Assembly: GCF_024757985.1 (NCBI RefSeq)
Contig: NZ_CP103289.1
Location: forward strand, 558,001 to 622,000
Reading direction: 5' to 3'
DNA length: 64,000 nt
Source: Cellulomonas sp. NS3
GTDB lineage: Bacteria > Actinomycetota > Actinomycetes > Actinomycetales > Cellulomonadaceae
Shown piece after piece: positions 1-12,175 of this stretch. The first letter of the stretch is position 1. Every line of letters starts with the position of its first letter. The notes beneath the pieces are model-generated. The model searched no databases and had not been told where the DNA came from. It saw only the letters and a program-made list of their open reading frames with translations. The position numbers and the translations under genes were made by a program.

Positions 1-3000
1 CAACCCCAGCACCTCGCGCGTGAGGTCCTGCTCGCTGCGACGGACGACGTCCTTCACGAGGAACCGCAGCGCCCGTGCGCGGACGTCCACGTAGAGCTGC
101 CTCGTGTACGGGTCCGGTGGCCCACCGACGTTGTGGTAGAGGTACGCGTGCACCACGGCACGCTGGTAGCTCCATGCGGCGGCGTGGACCTGTCCCTGCG
201 CGCGGAGCATGTCCGCGCGCAGCCGGTGCAGGTGGCTCATGAGCTCGTGGTCCGGGTCCGGCGGGTCCGCGGACGCGCCGCCCGTGGGCCGGTCCGGCTG
301 CGCGGTCCGCGCGGCGGTGCCCCACAGCTCCTGCACGCGCGAGAACGGCGGCAGGGCGGTTGTCGCGTCGGGGTCGGCCGCCGCGCGCGCGTTGTCGTGG
401 GCGATGAAGAGCAGCTGCGCCCGCTCGTAGGCCAGCCACGGGGCGACCCAGTGCTCGTGGTCGGCGTCCGCCACGATGTCCGACGAGCGCACGTAGGCGG
501 CGTCGGCCAGCCGGAACGACCGGTCCGTCCAGGGCGCGTACGTCCAGGCCCGCGCGACGAACAGCTGGGCGGTCGCGGTGACCCGTCGCTCCGTCGCGGC
601 GTCCTCGCCGCCGCCGCGGATCTCCTGCAGCGTCTGCAGCGCCTCCTGGATGCGGAGCCAGTCCACCTTCTCCGACTTGGTCGACCAGGGTGGGTAGAGG
701 TCGGCGATGTCGGCGAGCGCACGGTGCAGCTCCGCGAGCTCGGGCCACGCCCGCCGCCCGACGAGCGCCGCGACGCTCGACGGGTTGTCGCTCGCCTCCC
801 GCCGCGTGACGAGCTGGTGCAGGTCGGTGACGAGCTTGTCGCAGAAGTCGAAGTGGACGTAGTTCCCCCACCAGTGGAACGCGTCGAGGAACAGGGCCGC
901 CGCCTCGAGCACGAAGCGACGCTGCTCGGCCGGCTCCGTCAGCGCGCCGGAGTGGTACAGCCACTCCCGCGCCGCGGCCTGCCAGGCGGGGTCCTCGTAC
1001 CGGAACTGGGCGGCGAACGACCCGCCGGCACCGTCTGCCCCGTGCGCCCCGCTCTCCATCCGCGACCGGAAGTACGCCGCCGCGGCGCGGGACAGCGACG
1101 CCACGCGCGGCTGGTCGCTGGCCTGCAGGCGGGCGAGGAAGCTCGTGCGCACGTGCTCCTGGAGCCGCAGCACCGTGCCGTCGCCGTCGACGGTGTCGAC
1201 GAACGACAGCGTGGCGAGCTGGTCGAAGAGCCGCGGGACGCCACCCCGGTGACCCCCCGGCGCCAGGAGCGCGCGCAGCAGGTCGGCCGTGACGACGCGC
1301 GGGACGGCGGCCGCCTGCACGGCGCGCAGCAGGTCCTTGCGTCCCGAGCGTTCGAGCAGCTCGGTGACGAGGAGGGCGCACTGGTGCGGGCCCGGCCGCG
1401 GGAGGCCCAGCAGCACGGCGTCGAGCCGTCCGGGCTCGGGCGCCGCAGGTCCCCAGAGGATCTCGGCGACGAGCCGCAGCGTCGCGGGGTGCCCGCGGGT
1501 CAGCGCGAGCAGGCGCGCGGCGGTCAGCTGGTCGAGCGACGCCCCACGGCCGTCGGGCGACCGCTCGGCCCGGAACCGGCGGACGAACGCCCGCATCGCC
1601 GGCTCGTCGAGGTCGGACAGGACGTGCGGGGAGGCCCGGTCGGCGCCGAGCCGGCGCACGGCTCGGTCCGGCGCCGCGCCCGCGCCGGGTGGCGCCGTGA
1701 GACCGAGGACGGCGACCAGCCGGGTGGGCCCCGCCCCGCCCGTCGCCGCCAGCGTGTGCAGGAGCTCGGTGAGCCAGGTCCCGATGGGCTCGTCGAGCAC
1801 CTTGTCGACGTCGTCGAGGAGCAGGAGCGGGGGACCGTCGGGGCCGCCCGCGCGGCGCCGCCAGCACTCGGCGAACCGCGCCGCCACGTGCTCGGCCGCC
1901 CTCCCGACCGCCCGCACCTGCTCGTCCGGCTCGACCGGCCTGCGGAGCCGCTTCATGCTGGCCGCCAGGTCGGCCTCGCCCTCGGTCAGCAGGTGCTCGC
2001 GTGCCTCCGCCGCGGCACGCTCGATCGCGCTCAGGTCCCCGTCGACCAGCAGGGCGCGGGCGACGTCGGACAGCAGCTCGACCCACAGCGCGTAGCTCGC
2101 GTGCGCGCCGCCCACGGACGTCGCGGTCGCTTCGCCGGTGTGCCCCGGGTCGTACCGCTCCAGGTCGACGAGGTACGTCGGCCGCCGGCACGTGGCGGCG
2201 ATCTGACGCAGCACGCTCGTGCGGCCCGACCCCAGCTCGCCGTGCAGCTCCGCAAGCGGGCGCGCGTCGTCGTCCTCCCGCAGGACCTGGTGCACCAGGT
2301 CGTCCCGCCCGACGAACCCCGCCGCGCCGCTCAGCCCCGGGGCCGAGCCCGCGGGAGGAAGGTCCTCCTCGTCGTGGATCGGGGTCCCGAGATCCTCCGC
2401 CTCCGTCGCGCCGGTGTACCCGTCCGGCCACCGCACGTCGCGGAACCTGACCCCGCGCGGGCGGACCCCCGCGAGGTCGGCCTTCTCGAGGTCGGTGTGG
2501 TCGAGCCGCGCGCCGTCGAGCACGGCGCACCCCAGCGTCGCGTCGACCAGGACGGTGCGGGTGAGGTCCGCCCCGTCCAGGCGCGCGCCGTCGAGCGCGG
2601 CGCGGTCGAGGTGCGTGTAGCCCAGGTACGCGCCCTCGAGGTGCGCACCGCGCAGGTCCGCGCGGCGCAGGTCGAGGCCACCGAGCCGGAAGAGCTCGAC
2701 GCCGTACGCCGACGCCGGTCGGCTCACGAGCAGGGTCAGCGCGGTCTGGGCGTCGAGCGGGAGGTCCACGGCGTCTCCTCGCTGCACGACGCACAGCTCG
2801 CGCACCACGGTCTCGAGCACGCGTGCGCACACGACGCGGTGGGTCGCGCTGTCCGCCAGGCGGTCGAGGAGGTGGAGTGCGCCGATGCGGGTCTCGAGGT
2901 GCTCGTCGCGCAGCCGCTCCATGGCGTCGGCGAAGCGGGCGGCGCGCTCGTCGACCGTCCGGTCGTGCCGCTGGGCGGCGAACTGGCGCCAGGCCAGGGC

Positions 3001-3456
3001 CGCCCCCGACAGGGCGATGACGGCGGCCAGCGCCTGGGCGATCGGCGCCCGTGCGGCGCTCTGCACGGTGAGCCGGGCTGTTTCCGCCGCGATCCGGTCC
3101 TTGCCGGTGACCTCGGCCGCCGCCAGCTCGGCTGCGGTCAGCGGTGGGTAGAGGACCTGCGGCAGGAGCACGAGGGCGGCGAGCGTGAGGACCGTCCCGA
3201 CGACGAGCACCACGACCAGCGTCCGGCGGCTCATGGGCGCGGCCGCGTCGGGGTCGGCCGCCCGCGCGTACGGGACGCCCGCCGGTGGGCAGTCGTCGGG
3301 TGCCTCCGGGCGGCTGCGGTCGGCCCTCCGCAGCGCGGCACGGAGGCGGCGCGAGGGCGACGGCCGCGGGCCGACCCCGCTCTCCGGGGCGCCTTCGGGG
3401 CCCTGCCGGCCGTCCTCGGCCGTGGTGTTCCGCGTGGTCGTGTCGTGCTCGGACAT
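1..3456 (-). CDS. Membrane-anchored pentapeptide-repeat STAND-like NTPase (3' end beyond window)
   Basis: The frame stays open from the ATG at 3456 to the window edge, giving 1152 codons with no stop, so the C-terminus lies outside. An AGGAAGG ribosome site precedes the ATG. In order: a polar Arg-rich N-terminus (1-75), two hydrophobic segments (about 79-99 and 137-156), a helical stretch like that preceding pentapeptide repeats in actinobacteria, pentapeptide repeats (about 260-330, ADLRGAHLEGAYL type), then an NTPase with Walker A GELGSGRTS (about 405-414) and Walker B LLLLDDVD (about 544-551), and a long helical region continuing to the edge that could be a TPR-like sensor. The layout fits a STAND NTPase, a class used in signalling and in some antiphage systems. 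What it senses is unknown. The gene lies just downstream of a GH5 gene but is separated by a strong hairpin. Confidence 0.88.
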   Translation of the reverse strand, partial: MSEHDTTTRNTTAEDGRQGPEGAPESGVGPRPSPSRRLRAALRRADRSRPEAPDDCPPAGVPYARAADPDAAAPMSRRTLVVVLVVGTVLTLAALVLLPQVLYPPLTAAELAAAEVTGKDRIAAETARLTVQSAARAPIAQALAAVIALSGAALAWRQFAAQRHDRTVDERAARFADAMERLRDEHLETRIGALHLLDRLADSATHRVVCARVLETVVRELCVVQRGDAVDLPLDAQTALTLLVSRPASAYGVELFRLGGLDLRRADLRGAHLEGAYLGYTHLDRAALDGARLDGADLTRTVLVDATLGCAVLDGARLDHTDLEKADLAGVRPRGVRFRDVRWPDGYTGATEAEDLGTPIHDEEDLPPAGSAPGLSGAAGFVGRDDLVHQVLREDDDARPLAELHGELGSGRTSVLRQIAATCRRPTYLVDLERYDPGHTGEATATSVGGAHASYALWVELLSDVARALLVDGDLSAIERAAAEAREHLLTEGEADLAASMKRLRRPVEPDEQVRAVGRAAEHVAARFAECWRRRAGGPDGPPLLLLDDVDKVLDEPIGTWLTELLHTLAATGGAGPTRLVAVLGLTAPPGAGAAPDRAVRRLGADRASPHVLSDLDEPAMRAFVRRFRAERSPDGRGASLDQLTAARLLALTRGHPATLRLVAEILWGPAAPEPGRLDAVLLGLPRPGPHQCALLVTELLERSGRKDLLRAVQAAAVPRVVTADLLRALLAPGGHRGGVPRLFDQLATLSFVDTVDGDGTVLRLQEHVRTSFLARLQASDQPRVASLSRAAAAYFRSRMESGAHGADGAGGSFAAQFRYEDPAWQAAAREWLYHSGALTEPAEQRRFVLEAAALFLDAFHWWGNYVHFDFCDKLVTDLHQLVTRREASDNPSSVAALVGRRAWPELAELHRALADIADLYPPWSTKSEKVDWLRIQEALQTLQEIRGGGEDAATERRVTATAQLFVARAWTYAPWTDRSFRLADAAYVRSSDIVADADHEHWVAPWLAYERAQLLFIAHDNARAAADPDATTALPPFSRVQELWGTAARTAQPDRPTGGASADPPDPDHELMSHLHRLRADMLRAQGQVHAAAWSYQRAVVHAYLYHNVGGPPDPYTRQLYVDVRARALRFLVKDVVRRSEQDLTREVLGL

Positions 3457-3667
3457 GGCCTTCCTCGCCGGGAGTCGTCGTCCACCCTTCGGCGAGGAGA
3501 GACCCGAGCGCGGACCGAGATACCGGGGGTGCGCCTGGCGGCTGCCCCGGTCCGGCGGCTGGACGACGCCACGAGCCGGCTGGCCGGTGCGACCTCGCGG
3601 GGGGACGACGACGGCGCGCACCGCCCGGGCGGGTGCCCGTGCCGTGCGCGCCGTCGCGTGCGCTCCC

Positions 3668-3696
3668 GCCGCCCGCGGACCGGGTCCGTGGGCGGC
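3668..3696 (-). terminator. Hairpin terminator after the GH5 gene
   Basis: Two 14-nt arms (3668-3681 and 3683-3696) pair with one G-T wobble around a tiny loop. It sits 7 bp past the stop of the endoglucanase gene and about 210 bp before the STAND-like gene, so it should end the endoglucanase transcript. There is no clear T-tract, as is common in high-GC actinobacteria. Confidence 0.7.
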
Positions 3697-3702
3697 CCGT
3701 CG

Positions 3703-5415
3703 TCAGCCGACCGTGCCGGTGACCGCCGTCCCGTTCCGGACGACCGTGTACTGCAGCGTCTCGCCGCTCCAGAAGTGGAACGTCAGGACGACCGGCGCGC
3801 CGTCGGTCACCTCGGCGAAGAACGCCGGCCGCAGCACGATCGTCCCCGCGGCGGTGTCCGGCGCGAACGTCACGTCGTACTCCTTGAAGGACGTCCAGCT
3901 GTGCGGCCCCGCGTTCGAGCCGTCGAGGTAGCGCGCCTCCATCGTCGCGAGGCGGTCACCCCGGAACTCCGTCGGCACCGCGAACGCGTCGGTGGTCCCG
4001 GTCGCGTCCTGGAGCGCCGGGATGTCGGCGCTGACGACCTCGAGCCGCCACGGGACGCCCTTCGAGAACCGGACCTCGAGCACCGCGCGCGTGCCGTGCT
4101 CGCCGGAGCCGACGAGCCGGGTCAGCAGCGCCGCCGGCAGCGTGAGCGCGTCGCCCGCGAGCGTGAAGTCCTTGCCGGCCTTGAGCTTCTTGCCGTCGAG
4201 GTACAGGCCCTTGAAGGTCTGGCCGTTCGGGTTCAGCGTCACGGTCTGCGCCGCGACGGCGCCCGGGCGGACGAACACCTGGTCGGTCGACGCGGTGCCC
4301 GAGCGGCGCGTCCAGCTCGACCGGATCTGCGCGTACAGCGCCGGGTCGCTCCACGTGAACGCGGTGCGGTCCAGGTGCTGGCCGTTGTCCCAGAGCATCG
4401 TCGTGACGCCGGTCGTGCGCGCCTGGTGGCCGAGGGCCTCGAAGAACTTGAGCTTCTCGCCCTGCTCGATCGTGCCGGTGTGCCGGTCGAAGCCGAGCAG
4501 CCCGTACTCGCCGAGGATCACGGGGATGCCGCGCGCGACGAACGTGTCCCGCACGCGGTCGAACGTCCCGGTGAGGTCCGCCTGCGCGGCCGCGTCGAAG
4601 CGCGTCCCGCCCGCGACGTTCACGCTGAACGGCCAGTAGCCGTAGTAGTGGAACGTCGCCGCGAGGTTCGGGTCGTCGAGCTCCTCGAACGTCGCGACGA
4701 GCGCGTCGAGCCGGCCCTGGTCCGCGTTGGTGTGCAGCGTCGGCAGCACGAGCACGCGGTCGGCGTTGCGGCCGCCCGACGAGCGCACGACCTCGTGGAA
4801 CCGCACGTTGAGCTCGTGCAGCAGGGCGTAGCTCTGCTCGTCGCCGGACACCCCGGCGAACTGCGGCTCGTTGATGCTCTCGAACAGCAGCGTGCGCGGG
4901 TGGTCGCGGAACCGCTCGGCGAGCTGCTCCCACGTCGCGGTGAACTGCGCGAGGACCTCGTCGTGCCGGGTCGGCATCTGGTTCGTCCACATCCACGAGT
5001 CGTGGTGCAGGTCGAGCAGCACGCTCAGGTCGGCGTCGAGCGCCCAGTCGACGACCTCCTCGACCCGGTCGAGGACCGCCGGGTCGATCGTGTACGTCGG
5101 CGCGGGGCCCGAGTGCTGGCCCAGCGTCACGGGGATGCGGACGCTCTGGAAGCCGGCGTCCTCGACCGCGCGCAGCAGGTCCTCGGTCACGCGCGGGTTG
5201 CCCCACGCGGTCTCGTCGGCTCCGACAGCGTCGAGCGTGTTGCCGAGGTTCCAGCCCGGCTGCATCTCGGCGACGACCTCGGACGCGGGGTCGACGGCGG
5301 CGGGGCGCGGGCCCGCCTGCGGTGCTGTGCCGGCGCTCGCGGGAGCGACGACGGTGGTGGTCAGTGCGAGTGCGGCGGCCAGAGCGGTCAGGCTCGTCCA
5401 GGCGGGTCGTCTCAC
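3703..5415 (-). CDS. Secreted GH5 endoglucanase with Ig-like and CBM46-like C-terminal domains
   Basis: Hydrolyses beta-1,4-glucans (cellulose, possibly xyloglucan or mixed-linkage glucan) outside the cell. The 570-aa product has a signal peptide (about 1-28, ending ASA), a GH5 catalytic domain opening with GWNLGNTLDA (54-63), the metal/substrate motif LHHDSW (137-141), acid/base Glu183 in INEP and nucleophile Glu303 in GEYG. This resembles subfamily GH5_4. After about residue 373 come an Ig/X2-like domain and a domain resembling CBM46, the arrangement of Bacillus Cel5B-type enzymes. The GTG start at 5415 follows AAGGG. A palindromic LacI-type site lies 76 bp upstream, suggesting induction by a cello-oligosaccharide. 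It stands alone, ended by a hairpin. Confidence 0.93.
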   Translation of the reverse strand: MRRPAWTSLTALAAALALTTTVVAPASAGTAPQAGPRPAAVDPASEVVAEMQPGWNLGNTLDAVGADETAWGNPRVTEDLLRAVEDAGFQSVRIPVTLGQHSGPAPTYTIDPAVLDRVEEVVDWALDADLSVLLDLHHDSWMWTNQMPTRHDEVLAQFTATWEQLAERFRDHPRTLLFESINEPQFAGVSGDEQSYALLHELNVRFHEVVRSSGGRNADRVLVLPTLHTNADQGRLDALVATFEELDDPNLAATFHYYGYWPFSVNVAGGTRFDAAAQADLTGTFDRVRDTFVARGIPVILGEYGLLGFDRHTGTIEQGEKLKFFEALGHQARTTGVTTMLWDNGQHLDRTAFTWSDPALYAQIRSSWTRRSGTASTDQVFVRPGAVAAQTVTLNPNGQTFKGLYLDGKKLKAGKDFTLAGDALTLPAALLTRLVGSGEHGTRAVLEVRFSKGVPWRLEVVSADIPALQDATGTTDAFAVPTEFRGDRLATMEARYLDGSNAGPHSWTSFKEYDVTFAPDTAAGTIVLRPAFFAEVTDGAPVVLTFHFWSGETLQYTVVRNGTAVTGTVG

Positions 5416-5490
5416 GGGTTGCCCTTCTACGCGGGGGGCCTCGTTGCCCCGGGGGCGCGGTGCGACACGGGCCGCGACGGCTCGGTCCGT

Positions 5491-5506
5491 GTCGAAGCGC
5501 TTCGAC
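5491..5506. promoter_or_regulatory. LacI-family operator-like palindrome upstream of GH5 gene
   Basis: GTCGAAGCGCTTCGAC is a perfect 16-bp palindrome with the central CG typical of LacI/GalR operators. It lies 76 bp before the endoglucanase start. The core GAANCGNTTC recurs upstream of the esterase at 32086 and the second endoglucanase at 45396. Confidence 0.65.
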
Positions 5507-5589
5507 TGCAGCGTAGGCGACTCCGCGCCGGAACGGCACCCCCTGCCGTGGAGTGGTGTGCGGCGGTTGCCGGGGGGTCCGCGGTCCGG

Positions 5590-5832: not shown

Positions 5833-6329
5833 CAGATCACCTCGTCGAGCTCGGCGCGCAGCGTGGTCGCGGTCGAGTCGAGCGCGACCGCCTTCGCGAG
5901 CAGCGCACGCATTACGAGCACGAGCAGCGCGATCCCGATCCCGCCGATCGCGCCGACGCCGATGATCAGGACGATGCCGGGGGCGACGGCCTCGCCGGGC
6001 GCCAGGACCGTGCCGAGCGCGAGGGCCAGCACGGAGCCGGCGACGGCGGCGCCGATCACGACGTCGACGTAGCGGAACGCCGCGGGGCTGAACACCGTGT
6101 CGCGCCGCACCATCGTGAGCAGCCGCCAGAGGCACACGAGCGCGACCTCGACCGCGGCGACGGCCAGGAAGCAGATCACGACGATCGGCCAGCGCAGGTG
6201 CGTGAGCTCGCCCACCTCGCCGTCCGGGTCGACCGCGAGGAGCGGGAGCATCGCCGCCTGGAGCGCGAGCATCGCCGCGAACATCAGCACGATCACCACC
6301 CGGAGCGCGAGAACCGCCATGCGTCCCAT
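5832..6329 (-). CDS. DUF2975 membrane protein, partner of the Xre regulator
   Basis: A 165-aa integral membrane protein with four hydrophobic segments and the DUF2975 pattern (LRWPIVVICFLAVAAVEVAL; TVFSPAAFRYVD). The ATG at 6329 was chosen because GGGAAGG lies 8 nt ahead; an in-frame GTG at 6338 would sit directly on that ribosome site. It overlaps the HTH gene by one base (TGATG). DUF2975/YoaS proteins are usually encoded with such a regulator, but their biochemical role is not established. It may sense the envelope and release the regulator; that is inference. Confidence 0.85.
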   Translation of the reverse strand: MGRMAVLALRVVIVLMFAAMLALQAAMLPLLAVDPDGEVGELTHLRWPIVVICFLAVAAVEVALVCLWRLLTMVRRDTVFSPAAFRYVDVVIGAAVAGSVLALALGTVLAPGEAVAPGIVLIIGVGAIGGIGIALLVLVMRALLAKAVALDSTATTLRAELDEVI

Positions 6330-6350
6330 GTCGTGCACCTTCCCGTCGAC

Positions 6351-6381
6351 CTATCGAAGAACGATAGGAATCTATCGTTCT
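6351..6381. promoter_or_regulatory. Inverted repeat, probable Xre operator
   Basis: Arms AGAACGATAG (6358-6367) and CTATCGTTCT (6372-6381) pair perfectly over 10 bp with a 4-nt spacer. A further CTATCGAAG half site starts at 6351. The site is unusually A/T-rich for this genome and lies 22-52 bp upstream of the DUF2975 start, between that gene and azlD. It is a good candidate operator and promoter for the DUF2975-Xre operon. Confidence 0.65.
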
Positions 6382-6413
6382 AAGACGCCGTCGGCAAGAC
6401 TGCCCGGCGAACC

Positions 6414-6707
6414 TCACCCGAGCAGCACGTCGGCCAGCACGAACCCCGCGAGACCGCAGGCGAGCGTCAGCAGGAGCGAGCGCCGGAGCGCACCGAGCAG
6501 CGCACCCGCCGCGGCGGCCAGCACCGGCGGCTCCGGCAGCTCGCCGCCACCCAGCAGCGCGACCGCCGCCAGCCCGGCGAACAGCGGAGCCGGCAGCGCG
6601 TCGAGCACGTCGGCCGCGCGCCCGTGCGGCGTCGGGAGGAGCGTCATCGGCAGGACCCGCGACGCCACCGTCACGAGCGTCAGGGCGAGCAGCAGCGCGG
6701 TGGTCAC
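6414..6707 (-). CDS. azlD: AzlD-like branched-chain amino acid exporter small subunit
   Basis: A 97-aa protein with about four hydrophobic helices and the AzlD signature near ASRVLPMTLLP. It forms an inner-membrane exporter with AzlC that moves branched-chain amino acids or related substrates out of the cell. Its GTG start overlaps the azlC stop (GTGA), so the two are coupled. The exact substrate cannot be told from sequence. Confidence 0.85.
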   Translation of the reverse strand: MTTALLLALTLVTVASRVLPMTLLPTPHGRAADVLDALPAPLFAGLAAVALLGGGELPEPPVLAAAAGALLGALRRSLLLTLACGLAGFVLADVLLG

Positions 6708-7417
6708 GGCCGTGCCTCCGCCGTCGGGCCGGTCGTGGCGAGCGCACGCTCGACCGCGGGGTCGTCGCGGCGTCGCCGCACCGTCGCGGCGCACGCGCCC
6801 GCCACGACGACCGCCGCGAACGCCCCGGACTGCGGCACGGCGAGCGCCGCCGCCCCGGTCGCGATCGCCGCCGTCGCCGCGCGCAGCACGTCGGCGCGGG
6901 ACCGGCACGTGAGCGCCGCGAGGCCGACGAAGAGGATCACGAACACGACGCCCGCCGCCTGCTCGGCGCCGAGCAGGTCGGCGCCGAGCGCCCCGGCCGT
7001 GGTCCCGGCGACCCAGGCGGCGTACGCACCGAGACCCACGACCACCAGCGTCCGCGCGGCGGGCCGGTCGCGGGCCACCGCGAGCCCTGCGGTCTCGTCG
7101 AGCAGGACGAGCGCCAGGAGACCGCGCCGCGCCCGTCCGGCCCGGAGCCGGGGGAGGACGACCGCGGCGAGCGGCACGTGCCGCAGCCCGAGCGCCGCGA
7201 CGGCGACCAGGACGCCCTCCGGCGAGGCCCCGGCCTGCACGAGGCCGACCATCGTGAACTGGGCCGCGCCGGAGAACAGCAGCACCGACGAGGCGAGGGT
7301 CGTGCCCGTCCCGAGGAGCGGCGCGGCCGTCGCGCCGTAGATGACGCCGAAGACGCCGATCGCCGCGGCGACCGGGAGGGTGTCGAGCACGAGGCCCGCG
7401 CGGGTGGATCTGTCCAT
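6704..7417 (-). CDS. azlC: AzlC-like branched-chain amino acid exporter large subunit
   Basis: A 237-aa membrane protein with AzlC motifs: DTLPVAAAIGVFGVIYGATA near the N-terminus, SSVLLFSGAAQFTMVGL, and LLDETAGLA. The family has about six to eight helices and works with AzlD. The ATG at 7417 opens the gene; only 28 bp separate it from the divergent MocR-type regulator at 7446, which is the obvious candidate controller. Confidence 0.9.
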   Translation of the reverse strand: MDRSTRAGLVLDTLPVAAAIGVFGVIYGATAAPLLGTGTTLASSVLLFSGAAQFTMVGLVQAGASPEGVLVAVAALGLRHVPLAAVVLPRLRAGRARRGLLALVLLDETAGLAVARDRPAARTLVVVGLGAYAAWVAGTTAGALGADLLGAEQAAGVVFVILFVGLAALTCRSRADVLRAATAAIATGAAALAVPQSGAFAAVVVAGACAATVRRRRDDPAVERALATTGPTAEARP

Positions 7418-7445
7418 GAGCCGACCGTAGGGACACACTGGTCCC

Positions 7446-8885
7446 GTGCCCGGGTCCAATCCAGCGGTGCCGACCGGTACCAATCCTTCGCCGCACCTCG
7501 AGCTCGCCCCGATCGCCGGAACCGCCATGCCGTCCGTGGCCCTCGCCGAGGCGCTGCGCCGTGCGGTGCGCGACGGCCGGCTGCCCGCGGGGTCGCGCCT
7601 GCCGCCGTCGCGCGGGCTCGCGGACCAGCTCGGGGTCTCGCGCGGCGTCGTCGTGCGGGCGTACGAGCAGCTCGTCGCGGAGGGGTACCTGCGCTCGCGG
7701 ACCGGCTCCGGGACGGTCGTCGGCCACGTGCACGTCCCCCCGGCCGCGCCGGTCGTGCCGTCGCGGCCGTACGTCCCCGCCAACCCCGGGGTGCCCGCGC
7801 TCGGCTGGTTCCCCCGCACCGAGTGGCTGCGCGCGGCCGAGACGGCGGTGCGCGAGGCCACGGACCGCGAGCTCGGGTACGGCGACCCGCGCGGGCACCC
7901 GCGCCTGCGGCGCGCGCTCGCCGCCTACCTCGGGCGGACGCGCGCGGTCGTCGCACCCCCGGACCAGGTGGTCGTCACCGCGGGCTTCGCGCAGGGCGCG
8001 CGGCTCGTGGCCGAGGCCCTCGCGCGGCACGGCGTCGACGAGGTCGGCGTCGAGGACCCCGGCTCGGCGGGCGTCGTCGCGACCCTCCGCGCGGGGGGAG
8101 TCCGGACCGCCGCCATCCCGGTCGACGCCGACGGGATCCGGGTCGACGCGCTCGCGGCGGGCGACCTGCGCGCCGTCCTCGTGACTCCCGCGCACCAGTT
8201 CCCGACCGGCGCGGTGCTGACCCCGGCCCGGCGCGCGGCGCTGCTCGCGTGGGCCGACGAGCGCGACGCCGTCGTCGTCGAGGACGACTACGACGCCGAG
8301 TACCGGTACGACCGGTCGCCCGTCGGCGCGCTCCAGGGGCTCCGGCCCGACCGGGTCGTCCACGGCGGCAGCGTCTCCAAGAGCCTCGCGCCCGGGCTCC
8401 GGCTCGGCTGGCTCGTCGCGCCGGCGTGGCTCCTCGGCACGCTCGTGGAGGTCAAGCACCACGCGGACATCGCAGCCCCTGTCCTCGAGCAGCTCACGCT
8501 CGCGGTGTTCCTCGAGAGCGGCGGGCTCGACCGGCACGTCCGGCGCACGGCCGTGCACTACGCGGCCCGGCGGGCGCACCTGCTCACGGCCGTCGAGCGG
8601 CACCTGCCGGGGTGGCGCGCGACCGGCGTCGCGGCGGGCCTGCACGCGGTGGTCGTGCCCCCGCGCCCGCTGGCCGCGGACGTGCTCGACGCGATGGTCG
8701 CGGCGTCGGGCGACGTCGGCGTCGTGCCGCTCGCGGCGTTCGCGCACGGCGGTGGGCATCGCGGCGCGCACGTCAGCGGGCTCGTCGTCGGCTACGGCGA
8801 CGTCGCGCGCGACCAGCTCGACCGCGGCCTGGCCGCGATGGCGGCGGCCCTCGGCGGGCGGCGTCCGGCGTCCCCGCGCGCCTGA
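7446..8885 (+). CDS. MocR/PdxR-type GntR regulator with aminotransferase-like domain
   Basis: A 479-aa regulator. Residues about 15-85 form a GntR winged helix (ALRRAVRDGRLPAGSRLPPSR, LGVSRGVVVRAYEQL). The rest is a class-I aminotransferase fold with the PLP lysine in GSVSKSLAPGLRLGW. MocR proteins bind DNA in response to PLP or amino acid ligands. It diverges from azlCD by 28 bp, so it probably controls export of an amino acid. The GTG at 7446 has no good ribosome site; an in-frame GTG at 7467 is an alternative. Two CCAATCC repeats 24 bp apart lie in this start region. Confidence 0.9.
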   Translation: MPGSNPAVPTGTNPSPHLELAPIAGTAMPSVALAEALRRAVRDGRLPAGSRLPPSRGLADQLGVSRGVVVRAYEQLVAEGYLRSRTGSGTVVGHVHVPPAAPVVPSRPYVPANPGVPALGWFPRTEWLRAAETAVREATDRELGYGDPRGHPRLRRALAAYLGRTRAVVAPPDQVVVTAGFAQGARLVAEALARHGVDEVGVEDPGSAGVVATLRAGGVRTAAIPVDADGIRVDALAAGDLRAVLVTPAHQFPTGAVLTPARRAALLAWADERDAVVVEDDYDAEYRYDRSPVGALQGLRPDRVVHGGSVSKSLAPGLRLGWLVAPAWLLGTLVEVKHHADIAAPVLEQLTLAVFLESGGLDRHVRRTAVHYAARRAHLLTAVERHLPGWRATGVAAGLHAVVVPPRPLAADVLDAMVAASGDVGVVPLAAFAHGGGHRGAHVSGLVVGYGDVARDQLDRGLAAMAAALGGRRPASPRA

Positions 8886-9002
8886 CGTGCGTTGTGCTCG
8901 CCGTCACACGGCCGGGTGGAACCCCCGCATCATCCGGGTGCACCGCGTCCCGCGCGCTCACGTGCCGGCGGTGCCCGGCCGATGGACGACGAGGAGGTGA
9001 CC

Positions 9003-10553
9003 GTGCCCACGCTCGTCGAGCTCGTGTCCCTGGTCGCGGCCGTCCTGGCGACGATCACGGGCGTGCGCGTGCTGCGTCGCCGCCGGACCTCGCCGCTCGC
9101 GCCGCCCCTCGCGCTCATGCTGTTCGCGGCCTCCGAGTGGGCCGCGGCACGCGCGCTGCTGCACGTCGCCGAACGGTCCGTCCCGGCGACCGTGGCCCTG
9201 CACTACGCGGTCTTCCCCGGAGCGGCCGTCGTCGTCGGTGCCGCGTTCTGGTACTTCCTCGTGCTCTCCGGCCGCACGCTCTCGCGCCGGACCGCCGTGC
9301 TCCTGTGCGTCCACCCCGTCGTGCTCGGGCTCGTGCTCCTCACGAACCCGTGGCACGAGGCGTTCCTGCGCCTCGACGTCGTCGACGGGGCGGTCGTGGA
9401 CGGCGTCGGGCCGCTGTTCTGGGTGCACAGCGCGTACAGCTACGCGCTCCTGGTGCCCGGGATCGGGCTCGTGCTGCGCGCCATGGCCCGCGCCGTGCCC
9501 GGGCACCGGCACGTCTACGCCGTCGCGGTCCTCGGTGCCACGGTCCCCTCGGTCGGCAACGTGCTGACCACGGTCATCGCGACGCGGTCCGAGAACCTGC
9601 ACCTCACGCCCGTGTTCTTCCTGGTGAGCGCCGCCATCTGGGCGTGGGTCGAGCGGTTCCGCCAGCACAGCCGCGTCGTCCCCGTCTCCACCCGCCAGGT
9701 GCTCGAGGCGCTCGCGGACGCCGTCGTCGTGCTCGACCCGGCCGGGCGGCTGCTCGACGTCAACGCCGCGGCGCGCGTGCTGCTGCGCGGCCCCGACGGT
9801 GCGCCGCTCGACGACCGCGTGATCGGTGCGCCGTGGGACGAGCACCTCGGGTCGGAGCTCGGCGACGTGCTCGCCGACGGCGGGAGCCGCGTGCTCACGA
9901 CCTCCTCGGGCGCCGTGCTCGACGTGCGCGTGACGCGGATGACGGACCACGGTGGCCACCCGGTCGGCACGGTCGTCGTGCTGCGCGACGTGACCGAGCT
10001 CGAGCGGCTGCGCGCCGAGCTCGCGCACCAGGCGACGCGCGACGGGCTCACCGGGCTGCACAACCGGCGGGCGTTCGAGCAGCGACTCCGCGACGCCGTC
10101 GAGCACGCGCGGTCGACGGGCACCCCGCTGAGCGTCGTGCTGCTCGACCTCGACCACTTCAAGACCGTCAACGACACGCACGGCCACGCCGTCGGTGACC
10201 GCGTGCTGGTCGCCGTCGCGGACGCGCTCGCCGAGGCGGCGGCCGAGGGCGAGACGGTCGCGCGCCTCGGGGGCGAGGAGTTCGTCCTGCTGCTGCCCGG
10301 CCGGACCGCTCCGGAGGCCGCCCAGCGGGCCGACGAGGCGCGGGCCCGCTGTGCCGGCGCGGCCGTGGCGGTGCCGGGGGGCGACGTGCGCGTCACGATC
10401 AGCGCCGGGGCGGCGGAGCTGTCGCCGGACGGCACGTCGGAGGGGATCCTGCGGGCCGCCGACGTCGCGATGTACGCCGCCAAGGCCGCCGGGCGGGACC
10501 GGGTCGTCACCGCGCCCGAGCGCGGGGTGCGGCGTCGCGCCGTCCGGCGGTAG
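9003..10553 (+). CDS. Membrane diguanylate cyclase with 7TM, PAS and GGDEF domains
   Basis: A 516-aa protein making cyclic di-GMP from two GTP. The N-terminal 220 residues hold seven hydrophobic segments like the histidine-kinase N-terminal 7TM region. A PAS-like domain follows (about 232-335, AVVVLDPAGRLLDVNAAA), then a GGDEF domain with the active-site loop RLGGEEF near residue 423 and the nucleotide motif DLDHFKTVNDTHGH. GTG 9003 is preceded by GAGGAGG at 6-nt spacing, which decides it over the ATG at 8982. An inhibitory RxxD motif is not evident before GGEEF. The ligand sensed by the 7TM part is unknown. Confidence 0.92.
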   Translation: MPTLVELVSLVAAVLATITGVRVLRRRRTSPLAPPLALMLFAASEWAAARALLHVAERSVPATVALHYAVFPGAAVVVGAAFWYFLVLSGRTLSRRTAVLLCVHPVVLGLVLLTNPWHEAFLRLDVVDGAVVDGVGPLFWVHSAYSYALLVPGIGLVLRAMARAVPGHRHVYAVAVLGATVPSVGNVLTTVIATRSENLHLTPVFFLVSAAIWAWVERFRQHSRVVPVSTRQVLEALADAVVVLDPAGRLLDVNAAARVLLRGPDGAPLDDRVIGAPWDEHLGSELGDVLADGGSRVLTTSSGAVLDVRVTRMTDHGGHPVGTVVVLRDVTELERLRAELAHQATRDGLTGLHNRRAFEQRLRDAVEHARSTGTPLSVVLLDLDHFKTVNDTHGHAVGDRVLVAVADALAEAAAEGETVARLGGEEFVLLLPGRTAPEAAQRADEARARCAGAAVAVPGGDVRVTISAGAAELSPDGTSEGILRAADVAMYAAKAAGRDRVVTAPERGVRRRAVRR

Positions 10554-10636: not shown

Positions 10637-12175
10637 TCAGGAGGGCGACGAGCAGCGCTCGTCGGAGCTCCGCCGCGTCCCCGCGTCGTGCAGGGCGCGC
10701 GCGCCCGGGCCCGCCGGGGCGTCGGTGGTGGCGTCCGCGTGGCCGTCCCGGTCGCCGTCCGTCGCGACCGCGTCGATCACGTCCCCGCCCGACGCGAGCT
10801 CGCCCAGCACGACCGGGTCGCGCCGGCCCTGGGCCCGCGCGGCGACCCGCTCCGCGAGCGTCCGGTGCGCGTGCACGTACGCCGGGACGAGGAGCGCGAG
10901 GGCCGCGAGCCACGCGAGCGGGTTGCCCCACACGACGCCCTCGTAGCCCCACGACGCGCCCAGCACGACGGCCGCACCGACCCGGCAGACCAGCTCGAGC
11001 ACGCCGGTGAGGGTCGGGACCCAGGTGTGCCCGAGCCCCTGCAGCGCGCCGCGGAGCACGAACAGCGCGCCGAGGACCGCGTAGAGCGCGCCGTTGACGT
11101 GCAGGAAGTACGCGGCCATCGACACCACGGCCTCCTCGCCCGGGCCCACGAAGACCCGCACGAGCGTCGCCCCGCCCAGCGCGATCCCCGCGCCGAGGAC
11201 CGCGGAGCCGCCGACCGTGAGCCACAGCGCCTGCACGACGCCGGTCCGGATCCGGTCCGCGCGCCCGGCGCCGAGGTTCTGCGCCGCGAACATCGACACC
11301 GCGAGCCCCGCGGAGCCGAGCAGCGCCATCGCGAACTGGTCGACGCGCGACGCCGTCGTGTACGCGGCGACGGCGTCGGCCCCGAGGTCGTTGAGCCGGA
11401 CCTGCACCGCGAGGATGCCGATCGCGATGATCGACGCCTGGAACCCCATGGGCAGCCCGAGCCGCAGCTGGTGGCGCAGCTCGTCGCGCGTGACCCGCCA
11501 GTCCTCGCGGCGCACGTGCAGCGCGGGCACCCGGCGGCGCACGTGCGCGAGGCACAGCGCGACCGACGCGCCCTGCGACACCACGGTCGCGAGCGCCGCA
11601 CCGCCGACGCCCAGCCCGAGGCCCGGCACGGCCCCGAGGACGAGCACGATGTTGAGCACGCAGCTCGCGACGAGGTAGAGCAGCGGGGTCCGGGAGTCGC
11701 CGATCGCGCGCAGGACCGCCGAGAGGTAGTTGAAGAACATGATCGCCGCGGCGCCGAGGAACGTGACGACGGCGAACGTCGTGGCCTGCGGCAGCAGCTC
11801 GGGCGGCGTGCGCAGCAGGCGCAGCGCGGGCTCGGCGAGGAACGGGGCACCGGCGGTGACGAGCAGGCTCACCGCCGCGCTGAGGATCGTGCCGGCGGCC
11901 ACCGACCGGCGCACGGCCCGCGCGTCGCCCGCGCCGAAGGCCTGCGCCGTGGGGATCGCGAAGCCGGTCGTCATGCCCCACGCGAAGCCCAGCAGCAGGA
12001 ACAGGAAGCTGCCCGTGGCACCGACGGCGGCGAGGGCCTCGACCCCGAGCACGCGCCCGACGACGATCGCGTCGGTCACCTGGTAGAGCTGCTGGACGAC
12101 GTTGCCGAGGAACAGCGGCACGGTGAACAGGGAGATGACGCGCCAGGGGCTTCCGGACGTCAGGGATCGGGGCAC
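10637..12175 (-). CDS. MATE-family multidrug/sodium antiporter
   Basis: A 512-aa membrane protein with twelve hydrophobic segments in two MatE halves. It begins PWRVISLFTVPLFLGNVVQQLYQ, with the family motif TDAIVVGRVLGVEALAAVG, and the second half starts near LRLGLPMGFQASI. MATE pumps export cationic drugs or metabolites using Na+ or H+ gradients. GTG 12175 follows GGAGGA at good spacing. A 60-residue hydrophilic tail after the last helix (VDAVATDGDRDGHADAT) is unusual. It is convergent with the diguanylate cyclase gene. Confidence 0.9.
   Translation of the reverse strand: MPRSLTSGSPWRVISLFTVPLFLGNVVQQLYQVTDAIVVGRVLGVEALAAVGATGSFLFLLLGFAWGMTTGFAIPTAQAFGAGDARAVRRSVAAGTILSAAVSLLVTAGAPFLAEPALRLLRTPPELLPQATTFAVVTFLGAAAIMFFNYLSAVLRAIGDSRTPLLYLVASCVLNIVLVLGAVPGLGLGVGGAALATVVSQGASVALCLAHVRRRVPALHVRREDWRVTRDELRHQLRLGLPMGFQASIIAIGILAVQVRLNDLGADAVAAYTTASRVDQFAMALLGSAGLAVSMFAAQNLGAGRADRIRTGVVQALWLTVGGSAVLGAGIALGGATLVRVFVGPGEEAVVSMAAYFLHVNGALYAVLGALFVLRGALQGLGHTWVPTLTGVLELVCRVGAAVVLGASWGYEGVVWGNPLAWLAALALLVPAYVHAHRTLAERVAARAQGRRDPVVLGELASGGDVIDAVATDGDRDGHADATTDAPAGPGARALHDAGTRRSSDERCSSPS

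What the first reader, a model, noticed from the sequence alone, without database searches (positions are those of the whole stretch)
1..3456. Very long membrane-anchored pentapeptide-repeat STAND-like NTPase
One frame of 1152 codons joins two membrane helices, pentapeptide repeats, a P-loop NTPase (GELGSGRTS, LLLLDDVD) and a long helical region running out of the window. STAND NTPases sense invaders or metabolites and some act as antiphage effectors. The combination with pentapeptide repeats and membrane helices at the N-terminus is not a layout I can tie to a described system.
Basis: partly seen in the sequence, partly recalled or inferred. Interest (0 to 1): 0.62.

Follow-up and report, generated by a model that had tools for sequence, protein, structure and literature searches.

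The report
Membrane-anchored STAND-like fusion beside an acetyltransferase
A large bacterial protein joins a membrane anchor, a pentapeptide-repeat rod and a signalling-ATPase-like body whose ATP-binding residues look worn; it sits with an acetyltransferase gene in a small stretch of DNA that a close relative lacks, so the two probably work together in a task not yet known.

Summary
The minus-strand gene (ATG at window 3456) runs 266 bases past the window edge: 1,240 aa with two membrane helices, about 16 pentapeptide repeats, then an AAA_16/STAND-like P-loop body with GxP motif, winged-helix region and long helical C-terminus. It is a fusion: residues 75-345 match stand-alone membrane/pentapeptide proteins; from residue 381 it matches a rare 810-aa soluble family (28% identity), found full length, among genomes searched, only in three of one distant genus. 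There the nucleotide-site residues are intact; here Walker-A Lys is Arg, sensor-I Arg is missing and winged-helix His is Gln. So it is STAND-like in build, perhaps not a working ATPase. A close congener lacks it: a 4.8-kb insert, holding only this gene and a convergent GNAT acetyltransferase gene, sits between two carbohydrate-enzyme genes. A related, rare GNAT lies beside the STAND relative in one genome of the distant genus, and probably in a second across a contig break. No PADLOC model matches the protein and no defence island surrounds it. Best reading: an accessory sensor/scaffold with an acetyltransferase partner; an immune role is possible but unproven.

The parts
1..3456 (-). Coding sequence of the 1,240-aa fusion protein (residues 1-1152 in the window; the last 88 residues and the stop lie beyond the left edge, to base -266)
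3459..3466 (-). Ribosome-binding-site-like GAGGAAGG upstream of ATG 3456
   Evidence: sequence
3154..3222 (-). Transmembrane helix 1 (about residues 79-101)
   Evidence: hydropathy
2986..3048 (-). Transmembrane helix 2 (about residues 137-157)
   Evidence: hydropathy
2437..2691 (-). Pentapeptide-repeat rod (about residues 256-340)
   Evidence: Pfam PF00805 (best stretch 266-303); periodicity test
2422..3234 (-). N-terminal module homologous to stand-alone membrane/pentapeptide proteins (residues 75-345); ends in WPDGY, like the WPxGF near the end of L062 and L065 proteins
1657..2316 (-). P-loop NTPase-like domain, starts at FVGR (about residues 381-600)
   Evidence: AAA_16 33.2 bits; alignments
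2215..2241 (-). Walker A GELGSGRTS (406-414); Arg412 (2221-2223, codon CGC) in place of Lys
1804..1827 (-). Walker B LLLLDDVD (544-551)
1477..1500 (-). GxP motif TRGHPATL (653-660)
   Evidence: profile aligned with GHP of PH0952
1159..1161 (-). Gln766 in the winged-helix region, where three relatives have His
1..1089 (-). Long C-terminal region, probably helical and TPR-like (from about residue 790; continues outside the window to 1240)
   Evidence: alignment; TPR_12 E 9e-4 in relative P0002, below its cut-off
1..3606 (.). In-window part of the 4.77-kb insert (window about -1160 to 3606; G000:C1:556840-561606) absent from congener G002; its other gene, the GNAT, is an open frame at window -1165..-284, plus strand
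3703..5415 (-). Right neighbour, not part of the module: GH5 cellulase with CBM_X2 and CBM46; marks the conserved flank

Best explanation
The gene encodes a membrane-tethered, STAND-like scaffold that works with the GNAT acetyltransferase encoded tail-to-tail beside it; the pair is an accessory module that comes and goes between species. Shown: the fusion anatomy; homology of the body to a rare STAND-like family; an insert/empty-site difference from a close congener; a related rare GNAT next to the STAND relative in a distant genus. Inferred: the two membrane helices and the pentapeptide rod hold the body at the inner face of the membrane; the C-terminal helical region senses a ligand or partner; the usual STAND ADP/ATP switch is altered or lost because Walker-A Lys, sensor-I Arg and winged-helix His are replaced, so the protein probably acts by binding and scaffolding rather than ATP hydrolysis; GNAT is the most likely enzymatic output (acetylating a protein, RNA or small molecule).
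For: Fusion: residues 75-345 align with three stand-alone membrane/pentapeptide proteins (36, 34, 33% identity; 7 of 59 other class genomes matched residues 75-259), and the body begins at FVGR where two of the three relatives start MDLFVGR. Body family: G092, G224 and G462 full length. STAND-like: AAA_16; PH0952 best PDB match, E 7e-4 with profile A2 and 0.0055 with A3; GxP and winged-helix region. Substitutions. Insert: flanks 92% and 95% identical and adjacent in G002 (boundaries). GNAT pair: 40% identity over 183 aa between the window and G224 GNATs, each beside the STAND gene and convergent with it; the GNAT profile hits 5 of 393 class genomes, among them G000, G092 and G224, the three with a STAND member (hypergeometric 1e-6, 8e-4 if collapsed to genera); the G092 contig ends fit the same gene order.
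Against: Only two lineages show the pair, and contact of the two proteins is untested. GNATs of the group occur without the STAND body in G428, G438 and on two plasmids. In G092 sigma-like, zf-HC2 and unknown ORFs lie between GNAT and the contig end where STAND should follow (colinear DNA in G224); they are missing in the window. A Walker-A Arg does not prove loss of nucleotide binding. The PH0952 match is weak (its single best stretch alone has E 0.02 or worse). The structure model failed (mean pLDDT 39.6), so the C-terminal fold is not shown. Gain here or loss in G002 was not decided.
Confidence: 0.45

Rival explanations
1. An antiphage or conflict system: the STAND-like body senses an invader, and the membrane module (or the GNAT) acts as effector that stops or kills the cell.
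For: STAND-like build; presence in an insert that a congener lacks; CAP12-type TIR and CATRA/GT4-conflict genes on the GNAT contig of G092 and, by eye, a WD40/NACHT-like ATPase beside the GNAT of G224; a GNAT relative followed by a caspase-family gene on a Rhodococcus plasmid; published precedents in passages seen: a STAND NTPase called inactive (BrxB) and a BREX-related system with both STAND and GNAT components (PMC12839542), a GCN5-like acetyltransferase and pentapeptide repeats among conflict-system domains (PMC7159879).
Against: PADLOC lists nothing for the protein or for its relative P0002; flanking genes are GH5, GH11/CE4, GNAT, TetR, VWA and the like; residues used by the STAND switch are replaced; no phage, viral-contig or plasmid copy of the body found.
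Confidence: 0.25
2. A membrane signalling protein for carbohydrate use or envelope stress: like MalT it senses a sugar or wall fragment and controls the adjoining cellulase and xylanase genes, the GNAT being incidental or a detoxifier.
For: GH5 and GH11/CE4 genes flank the insert; MalT is a TPR-sensor STAND homologous to PH0952 (passages of PMC6468293); sigma-like and zf-HC2 ORFs lie in the G092 cluster.
Against: The glycosidase genes are neighbours in G002 without it, so it is not needed there; by eye I recognised no glycosidase beside the relatives in the stretches read (those ORFs were not all family-searched); no DNA-binding domain is listed for the protein at E<=1, apart from a sub-threshold DnaG/DnaB-binding match.
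Confidence: 0.15
3. A decaying or recently fused gene with no present function: a pentapeptide protein and a STAND body fused by chance and the NTPase site drifting.
For: Three nucleotide-site residues replaced; the fused form was seen in one genome only of those searched; many small indels against relatives.
Against: A 1,240-codon frame without stop, strong third-position bias, a good ribosome site, Walker B, GxP and many other residues kept; the GNAT partner keeps its RGRGLG motif.
Confidence: 0.15

Closest known systems
TPR-sensor STAND proteins (PH0952, MalT)
   Same: FVGR start, P-loop region, Walker B, GxP motif, winged-helix region, long C-terminus; PH0952 is the best PDB sequence match (passages of PMC6468293)
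   Different: Walker-A Lys to Arg, no sensor-I Arg, winged-helix His to Gln; N-terminal membrane plus pentapeptide module; partner GNAT
Stand-alone membrane/pentapeptide-repeat proteins of actinobacteria (L062-L064, L067, L068)
   Same: Membrane helices (by eye), a shared helical stretch, pentapeptide repeats; WPxGF in L062 and L065
   Different: They are 311-419 aa and carry no NTPase
Soluble 810-aa STAND-like family (P0002, P0003, P0004)
   Same: Whole body, 28% identity, P-loop to C-terminus; P0003 also has a related GNAT beside it
   Different: No N-terminal fusion; Walker-A Lys, sensor-I Arg and winged-helix His present
GNAT acetyltransferases
   Same: Acetyltransf_1 33.5 bits over cut-off 20.7; RGRGxG motif; profile matches GNAT structures, best 3ey5 E 6e-6
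   Different: A rare group (5 of 393 class genomes at E<=1e-15) with a C-terminal FLEE..CEG tail in some; no NCBIfam family for the window protein at E<=0.01
BrxB and BREX-related (BRC) systems (passages of PMC12839542)
   Same: BrxB is described as an inactive STAND NTPase; BRC loci include both a STAND NTPase and, in a subset, a GNAT
   Different: None of the other named components (PglZ, HerA/FtsK, TGT, DUF6079, DUF4007) appears among the Pfam names of the ten flanking proteins scanned

Membership tests
STAND NTPase, TPR-sensor class | Walker A GxxxxGK[ST] | tested here: not met
   GELGSGRTS, Arg412 for Lys; codon CGC differs from AAG at all three bases, so one miscalled base cannot explain it; three relatives have Lys
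STAND NTPase, TPR-sensor class | Walker B hhhhD | tested here: met
   LLLLDDVD 544-551, aligned Asp invariant in 4 of 4
STAND NTPase, TPR-sensor class | GxP motif in the helical domain | tested here: met
   TRGHPATL; profile aligned with GHP in PH0952
STAND NTPase, TPR-sensor class | Winged-helix residue contacting ADP phosphates (His382 in PH0952) | tested here: inconclusive
   Gln766 where 3 of 3 relatives have His; that this position equals PH0952 His382 is inferred from motif position, not from an alignment to that structure
STAND NTPase, TPR-sensor class | C-terminal superstructure repeats (TPR) | tested here: inconclusive
   No TPR match in the window protein; TPR_12 E 9e-4 below its cut-off in P0002; model pLDDT 39.6
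STAND NTPase, TPR-sensor class | Inducer-driven oligomerisation | not testable with these tools
   needs protein
Pentapeptide-repeat protein | Tandem A(D/N)LXX repeats with central L/F | tested here: met
   PF00805 E 8.6e-13; periodicity
Known antiphage defence systems (PADLOC 2.0) | Match to a system protein model, or defence-gene surroundings | tested here: not met
   0 models for P0001 at E<=1; of 9 flanking proteins plus P0002 only an ArsR-type regulator hits (Csa3 E 2.5e-8, CARF3)
GNAT superfamily (partner gene) | Acetyl-CoA motif and Pfam match | tested here: met
GNAT toxin-antitoxin (TacT/AtaT type, recalled) | GNAT beside a ribbon-helix-helix antitoxin gene | tested here: not met
   little room for one: 17 bp to the STAND stop on one side; about 170 bp between the GH11 gene's start and the first ATG of the GNAT frame on the other. 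Genes under 90 aa were not listed

The most novel reading that the evidence does not exclude
A rare GNAT group is the constant part of an undescribed actinobacterial signalling or conflict module with exchangeable large partners: a STAND-like ATPase (soluble, or membrane-fused and nucleotide-dead as here), or a 757-759-aa protein with C-terminal membrane helices, once with a caspase-family gene nearby. In the window lineage the sensor has become a membrane-bound pseudo-ATPase that controls the acetyltransferase without ATP turnover.
Probability: 0.25. Interest if true: 0.7.

Novelty: new variant of a known kind. Interest (0 to 1): 0.45.

Why it matters
If the pair works as proposed, it is a compact, testable link between a STAND-type sensor and acetylation. 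The natural pairing of versions with intact (three relatives) and altered (window) nucleotide sites would let one ask what the ATP switch is for. It also gives the stand-alone actinobacterial membrane/pentapeptide proteins a possible role, as an anchor or scaffold for a signalling body.

Tried and rejected
Rejected: the plus-strand 2,023-aa frame (antisense); the G082 match (a 69-aa frame antisense to a MurJ-like gene recognised by eye); partial matches (43 genomes besides the own, none covering more than about 250 of 806 profile positions in the listing; 9 of 12 matching genomes) as family members; a defence-island setting; one miscalled base as the source of the Walker-A change (all three bases differ). 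Profile comparison of the body with the 757-aa Rhodococcus protein gave nothing (hhalign probability 0.06).

Led nowhere: two genome-contig scans with single proteins; viral-contig scans with body and GNAT; plasmid and phage tblastn of the body; phage tblastn of the G224 GNAT; promoter and terminator scan (none found); structure prediction from one sequence (unusable, so no fold search was run). Literature searches (listings, and passages of five papers) showed no description of a pentapeptide-STAND fusion of this layout or of a two-gene GNAT-STAND pair; what comes nearest is in passages on conflict systems: pentapeptide repeats, STAND and caspase domains as variable partners of TRADD-N (PMC7159879, PMC8195603), Orc/CDC6 fused to STAND or pentapeptide repeats (PMC10853773), and BRC loci with STAND and GNAT (PMC12839542). 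The library lacks most subscription papers. No genome-search runs were left to look for the GNAT in G002 or G462.
Full report
The observation. The minus-strand frame is real and longer than reported. With the neighbouring sequence (G000:C1:545001-563500, locus L009) the gene runs from ATG at window 3456, preceded by GAGGAAGG, to a stop 266 bases left of the window: 1,240 aa. Its third-position GC is 0.95. Two hydrophobic stretches (72-108, 137-157) and about 16 pentapeptide repeats (about residues 256-340) are confirmed (Pfam PF00805 E 8.6e-13). The body matches AAA_16 just above cut-off when residues 377-1152 are scanned alone (33.2 against 32.6 bits); in the full-length scan AAA_16 was not listed, and AAA_22 and nSTAND_NTPase5 appeared below their cut-offs. 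NCBIfam lists only pentapeptide families, all below cut-off, and PADLOC nothing.

A fusion of two families. A search of 60 class genomes with residues 75-259 gave matches in 7 of the 59 others (E 3e-8 to 7e-4). Five whose frames I listed and accept (L062-L064, L067, L068) are stand-alone proteins of 311-419 aa with membrane helices (by eye) followed by pentapeptide repeats. A sixth (L065, 327 aa) looks alike. The seventh (L066) carries an in-frame stop in the match and was not examined. Alignment with three of them gives 36, 34 and 33% identity. The WPDGY at the end of the window's rod resembles the WPxGF near the end of L062 and L065 proteins. From residue 381 (FVGR) the protein instead matches a family of 809-814-aa proteins that begin at or shortly before FVGR: P0002 (G092), P0003 (G224) and P0004 (G462), each 28% identical to the window protein.

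How rare the body is. Own full-length match only: 1 of 79 relatives, 1 of 7 in the genus, 1 of 396 in the order. In 393 class genomes: own, G092 and G224, plus a spurious match in G082. In 396 phylum genomes: own full length, and 43 others with partial matches only. In the family of G092, 3 of 35 full length, all one genus, and 9 more with partial matches. In the large draws only two candidates per genome were scored, so distant members could be missed.

What kind of body. With the A2 profile the best PDB match is PH0952, the TPR-sensor STAND of Pyrococcus horikoshii (E 7e-4 for the whole chain, 0.02 for its best single stretch; 0.0055 and 0.15 with the four-row profile A3); that stretch runs from Walker B to GxP. 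The other matches are mostly AAA+ Clp and ABC-type ATPases by the P-loop region. Of seven other actinobacterial ATPases tested, three share the P-loop region, the GxP region and part of the winged-helix region with the profile (E-values there are for a set of 7), and these score best with AAA_16. TPR_12 appears below its cut-off in P0002 and, more weakly, P0003. I therefore call the layout STAND-like, with the C-terminal repeats likely but not shown. Structure prediction from the single sequence failed (mean pLDDT 39.6).

Altered nucleotide site. In the four-row alignment the three relatives have GxxGxGK[ST], LVV[IV]AR (sensor-I Arg; motif name recalled) and RLHEF. The window protein has GELGSGRTS, LVAVLGL and RLQEH. 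Arg412 is coded CGC, three changes from AAG, so it is not one miscalled base. PMC6468293 (passages read) reports that in PH0952 ADP contacts the P-loop, the GxP motif and His382 of the winged helix; that Gln766 is the equivalent of His382 is my inference from motif position. The window protein keeps Walker B and GxP. It probably does not run the usual ADP/ATP cycle. That is inference, and Walker-A Arg could still allow binding. A STAND NTPase described as inactive is known in BREX (BrxB; passage of PMC12839542).

An insert with a partner. G002 is the one congener with a close GH5 relative (96% identical; 1 of 6 congeners at E<=1e-30). There the GH5 flank (95% DNA identity) and the GH11/CE4 flank (92%) are neighbours: L009 11840-16606, 4.77 kb, is replaced by about 83 bp. 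In the ORFs listed (90 codons or more) the insert holds two genes: this one and a convergent GNAT frame ending 17 bp from its stop (L009 11835-12716). GC is 0.768 in the insert against 0.727 and 0.732 in the flanks, and local alignment of the two ends gave no clear direct or inverted repeat. The direction (gain here or loss in G002) is not proved, but 0 of 6 other congeners carry the body.

A GNAT also lies beside the STAND relative. In G224 a GNAT 40% identical over 183 aa (E 9e-33) lies on the same contig, convergent with the STAND gene and roughly 1.8 kb away. A profile of the two finds 5 of 393 class genomes at E<=1e-15: G000, G224, G092, G428 and G438 (up to seven candidates scored per genome). 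The three with a STAND member are all among them (hypergeometric 1e-6; 8e-4 collapsed to genera). The two calls drew 393 genomes each with the same settings; I did not check that the sets are identical. In G092 the GNAT sits 1.5 kb from one contig end, followed by sigma-70 region 4-like, zf-HC2 and unknown ORFs in DNA colinear with G224, and the STAND stop is 28 bp from another contig's end, which fits the same order. The ends do not overlap, so the join is inferred. For G462 the STAND also lies near a contig end and the GNAT was not sought.

GNAT without STAND. In G428 and on a Rhodococcus plasmid the GNAT follows a 757-759-aa protein with C-terminal hydrophobic segments (by eye; 27% identical to each other over a 721-column alignment, E 1e-34; no Pfam match). 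On the plasmid a caspase-family gene follows about 0.7 kb on. In G438 and on a Streptomyces plasmid (whose gene table is incomplete) no evident partner was seen. So of seven GNAT loci read, three go with the STAND body (one across a contig break), two with the 757-759-aa protein and two with neither.

Function. Flanking genes in the window genome are GH5-CBM46, GH11-CE4, GNAT, TetR, VWA, ArsR-type, dienelactone-hydrolase-like and DUF2975 genes and a GGDEF gene. PADLOC hits one of nine flanking proteins, the ArsR-type regulator (Csa3 E 2.5e-8, CARF3, over its HTH). On the GNAT contig of G092 there are conflict-type genes (CAP12 TIR, CATRA/GT4), but I made no control for how common they are in such genomes. 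Published passages place pentapeptide repeats, STAND NTPases and acetyltransferases among domains of conflict systems, and BRC loci carry a STAND NTPase and, in a subset, a GNAT (PMC7159879, PMC8195603, PMC10853773, PMC12839542); none of the passages I saw describes this two-gene pair. My best reading is an accessory membrane scaffold/sensor with an acetyltransferase output; antiphage activity is a live but weaker rival.

Verdict. The layout is real, is a new variant of known parts, and the gene pair is the more interesting finding. The mechanism is inferred.

Noticed in passing
L085 (G092:C15) 1578-4052, 46-1512 and 10731-11624: CATRA-N/C fused to a GT4-conflict glycosyltransferase, a CHAT-like ORF (by eye) and a CAP12-type TIR protein lie on the same contig as the GNAT; the TIR gene is next to it, on the other strand.
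   Followed up: partly
L089 (Rhodococcus sp. DMU1 plasmid NZ_CP050953.1) 6520-11207 and L086 (G428) 6293-9221: A 757-759-aa protein with C-terminal hydrophobic segments and no Pfam match is followed at once by the GNAT; on the plasmid a caspase-family gene follows.
   Followed up: partly
L009 4159-7803: A 1,214-aa VWA-domain protein gene: the DNA on either side of this stretch is nearly adjacent in G002, so this region differs from G002 in a second place.
   Followed up: no
L059 (G224) 1915-5556: A large ATPase with WD40-like repeats (by eye, not family-searched) lies beside the GNAT of G224.
   Followed up: no
L085 12.5-14.07 kb; L059 7359-8153: Sigma-70 region 4-like, zf-HC2 and unknown ORFs follow the GNAT in G092, with colinear DNA in G224; they are missing in the window.
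   Followed up: partly
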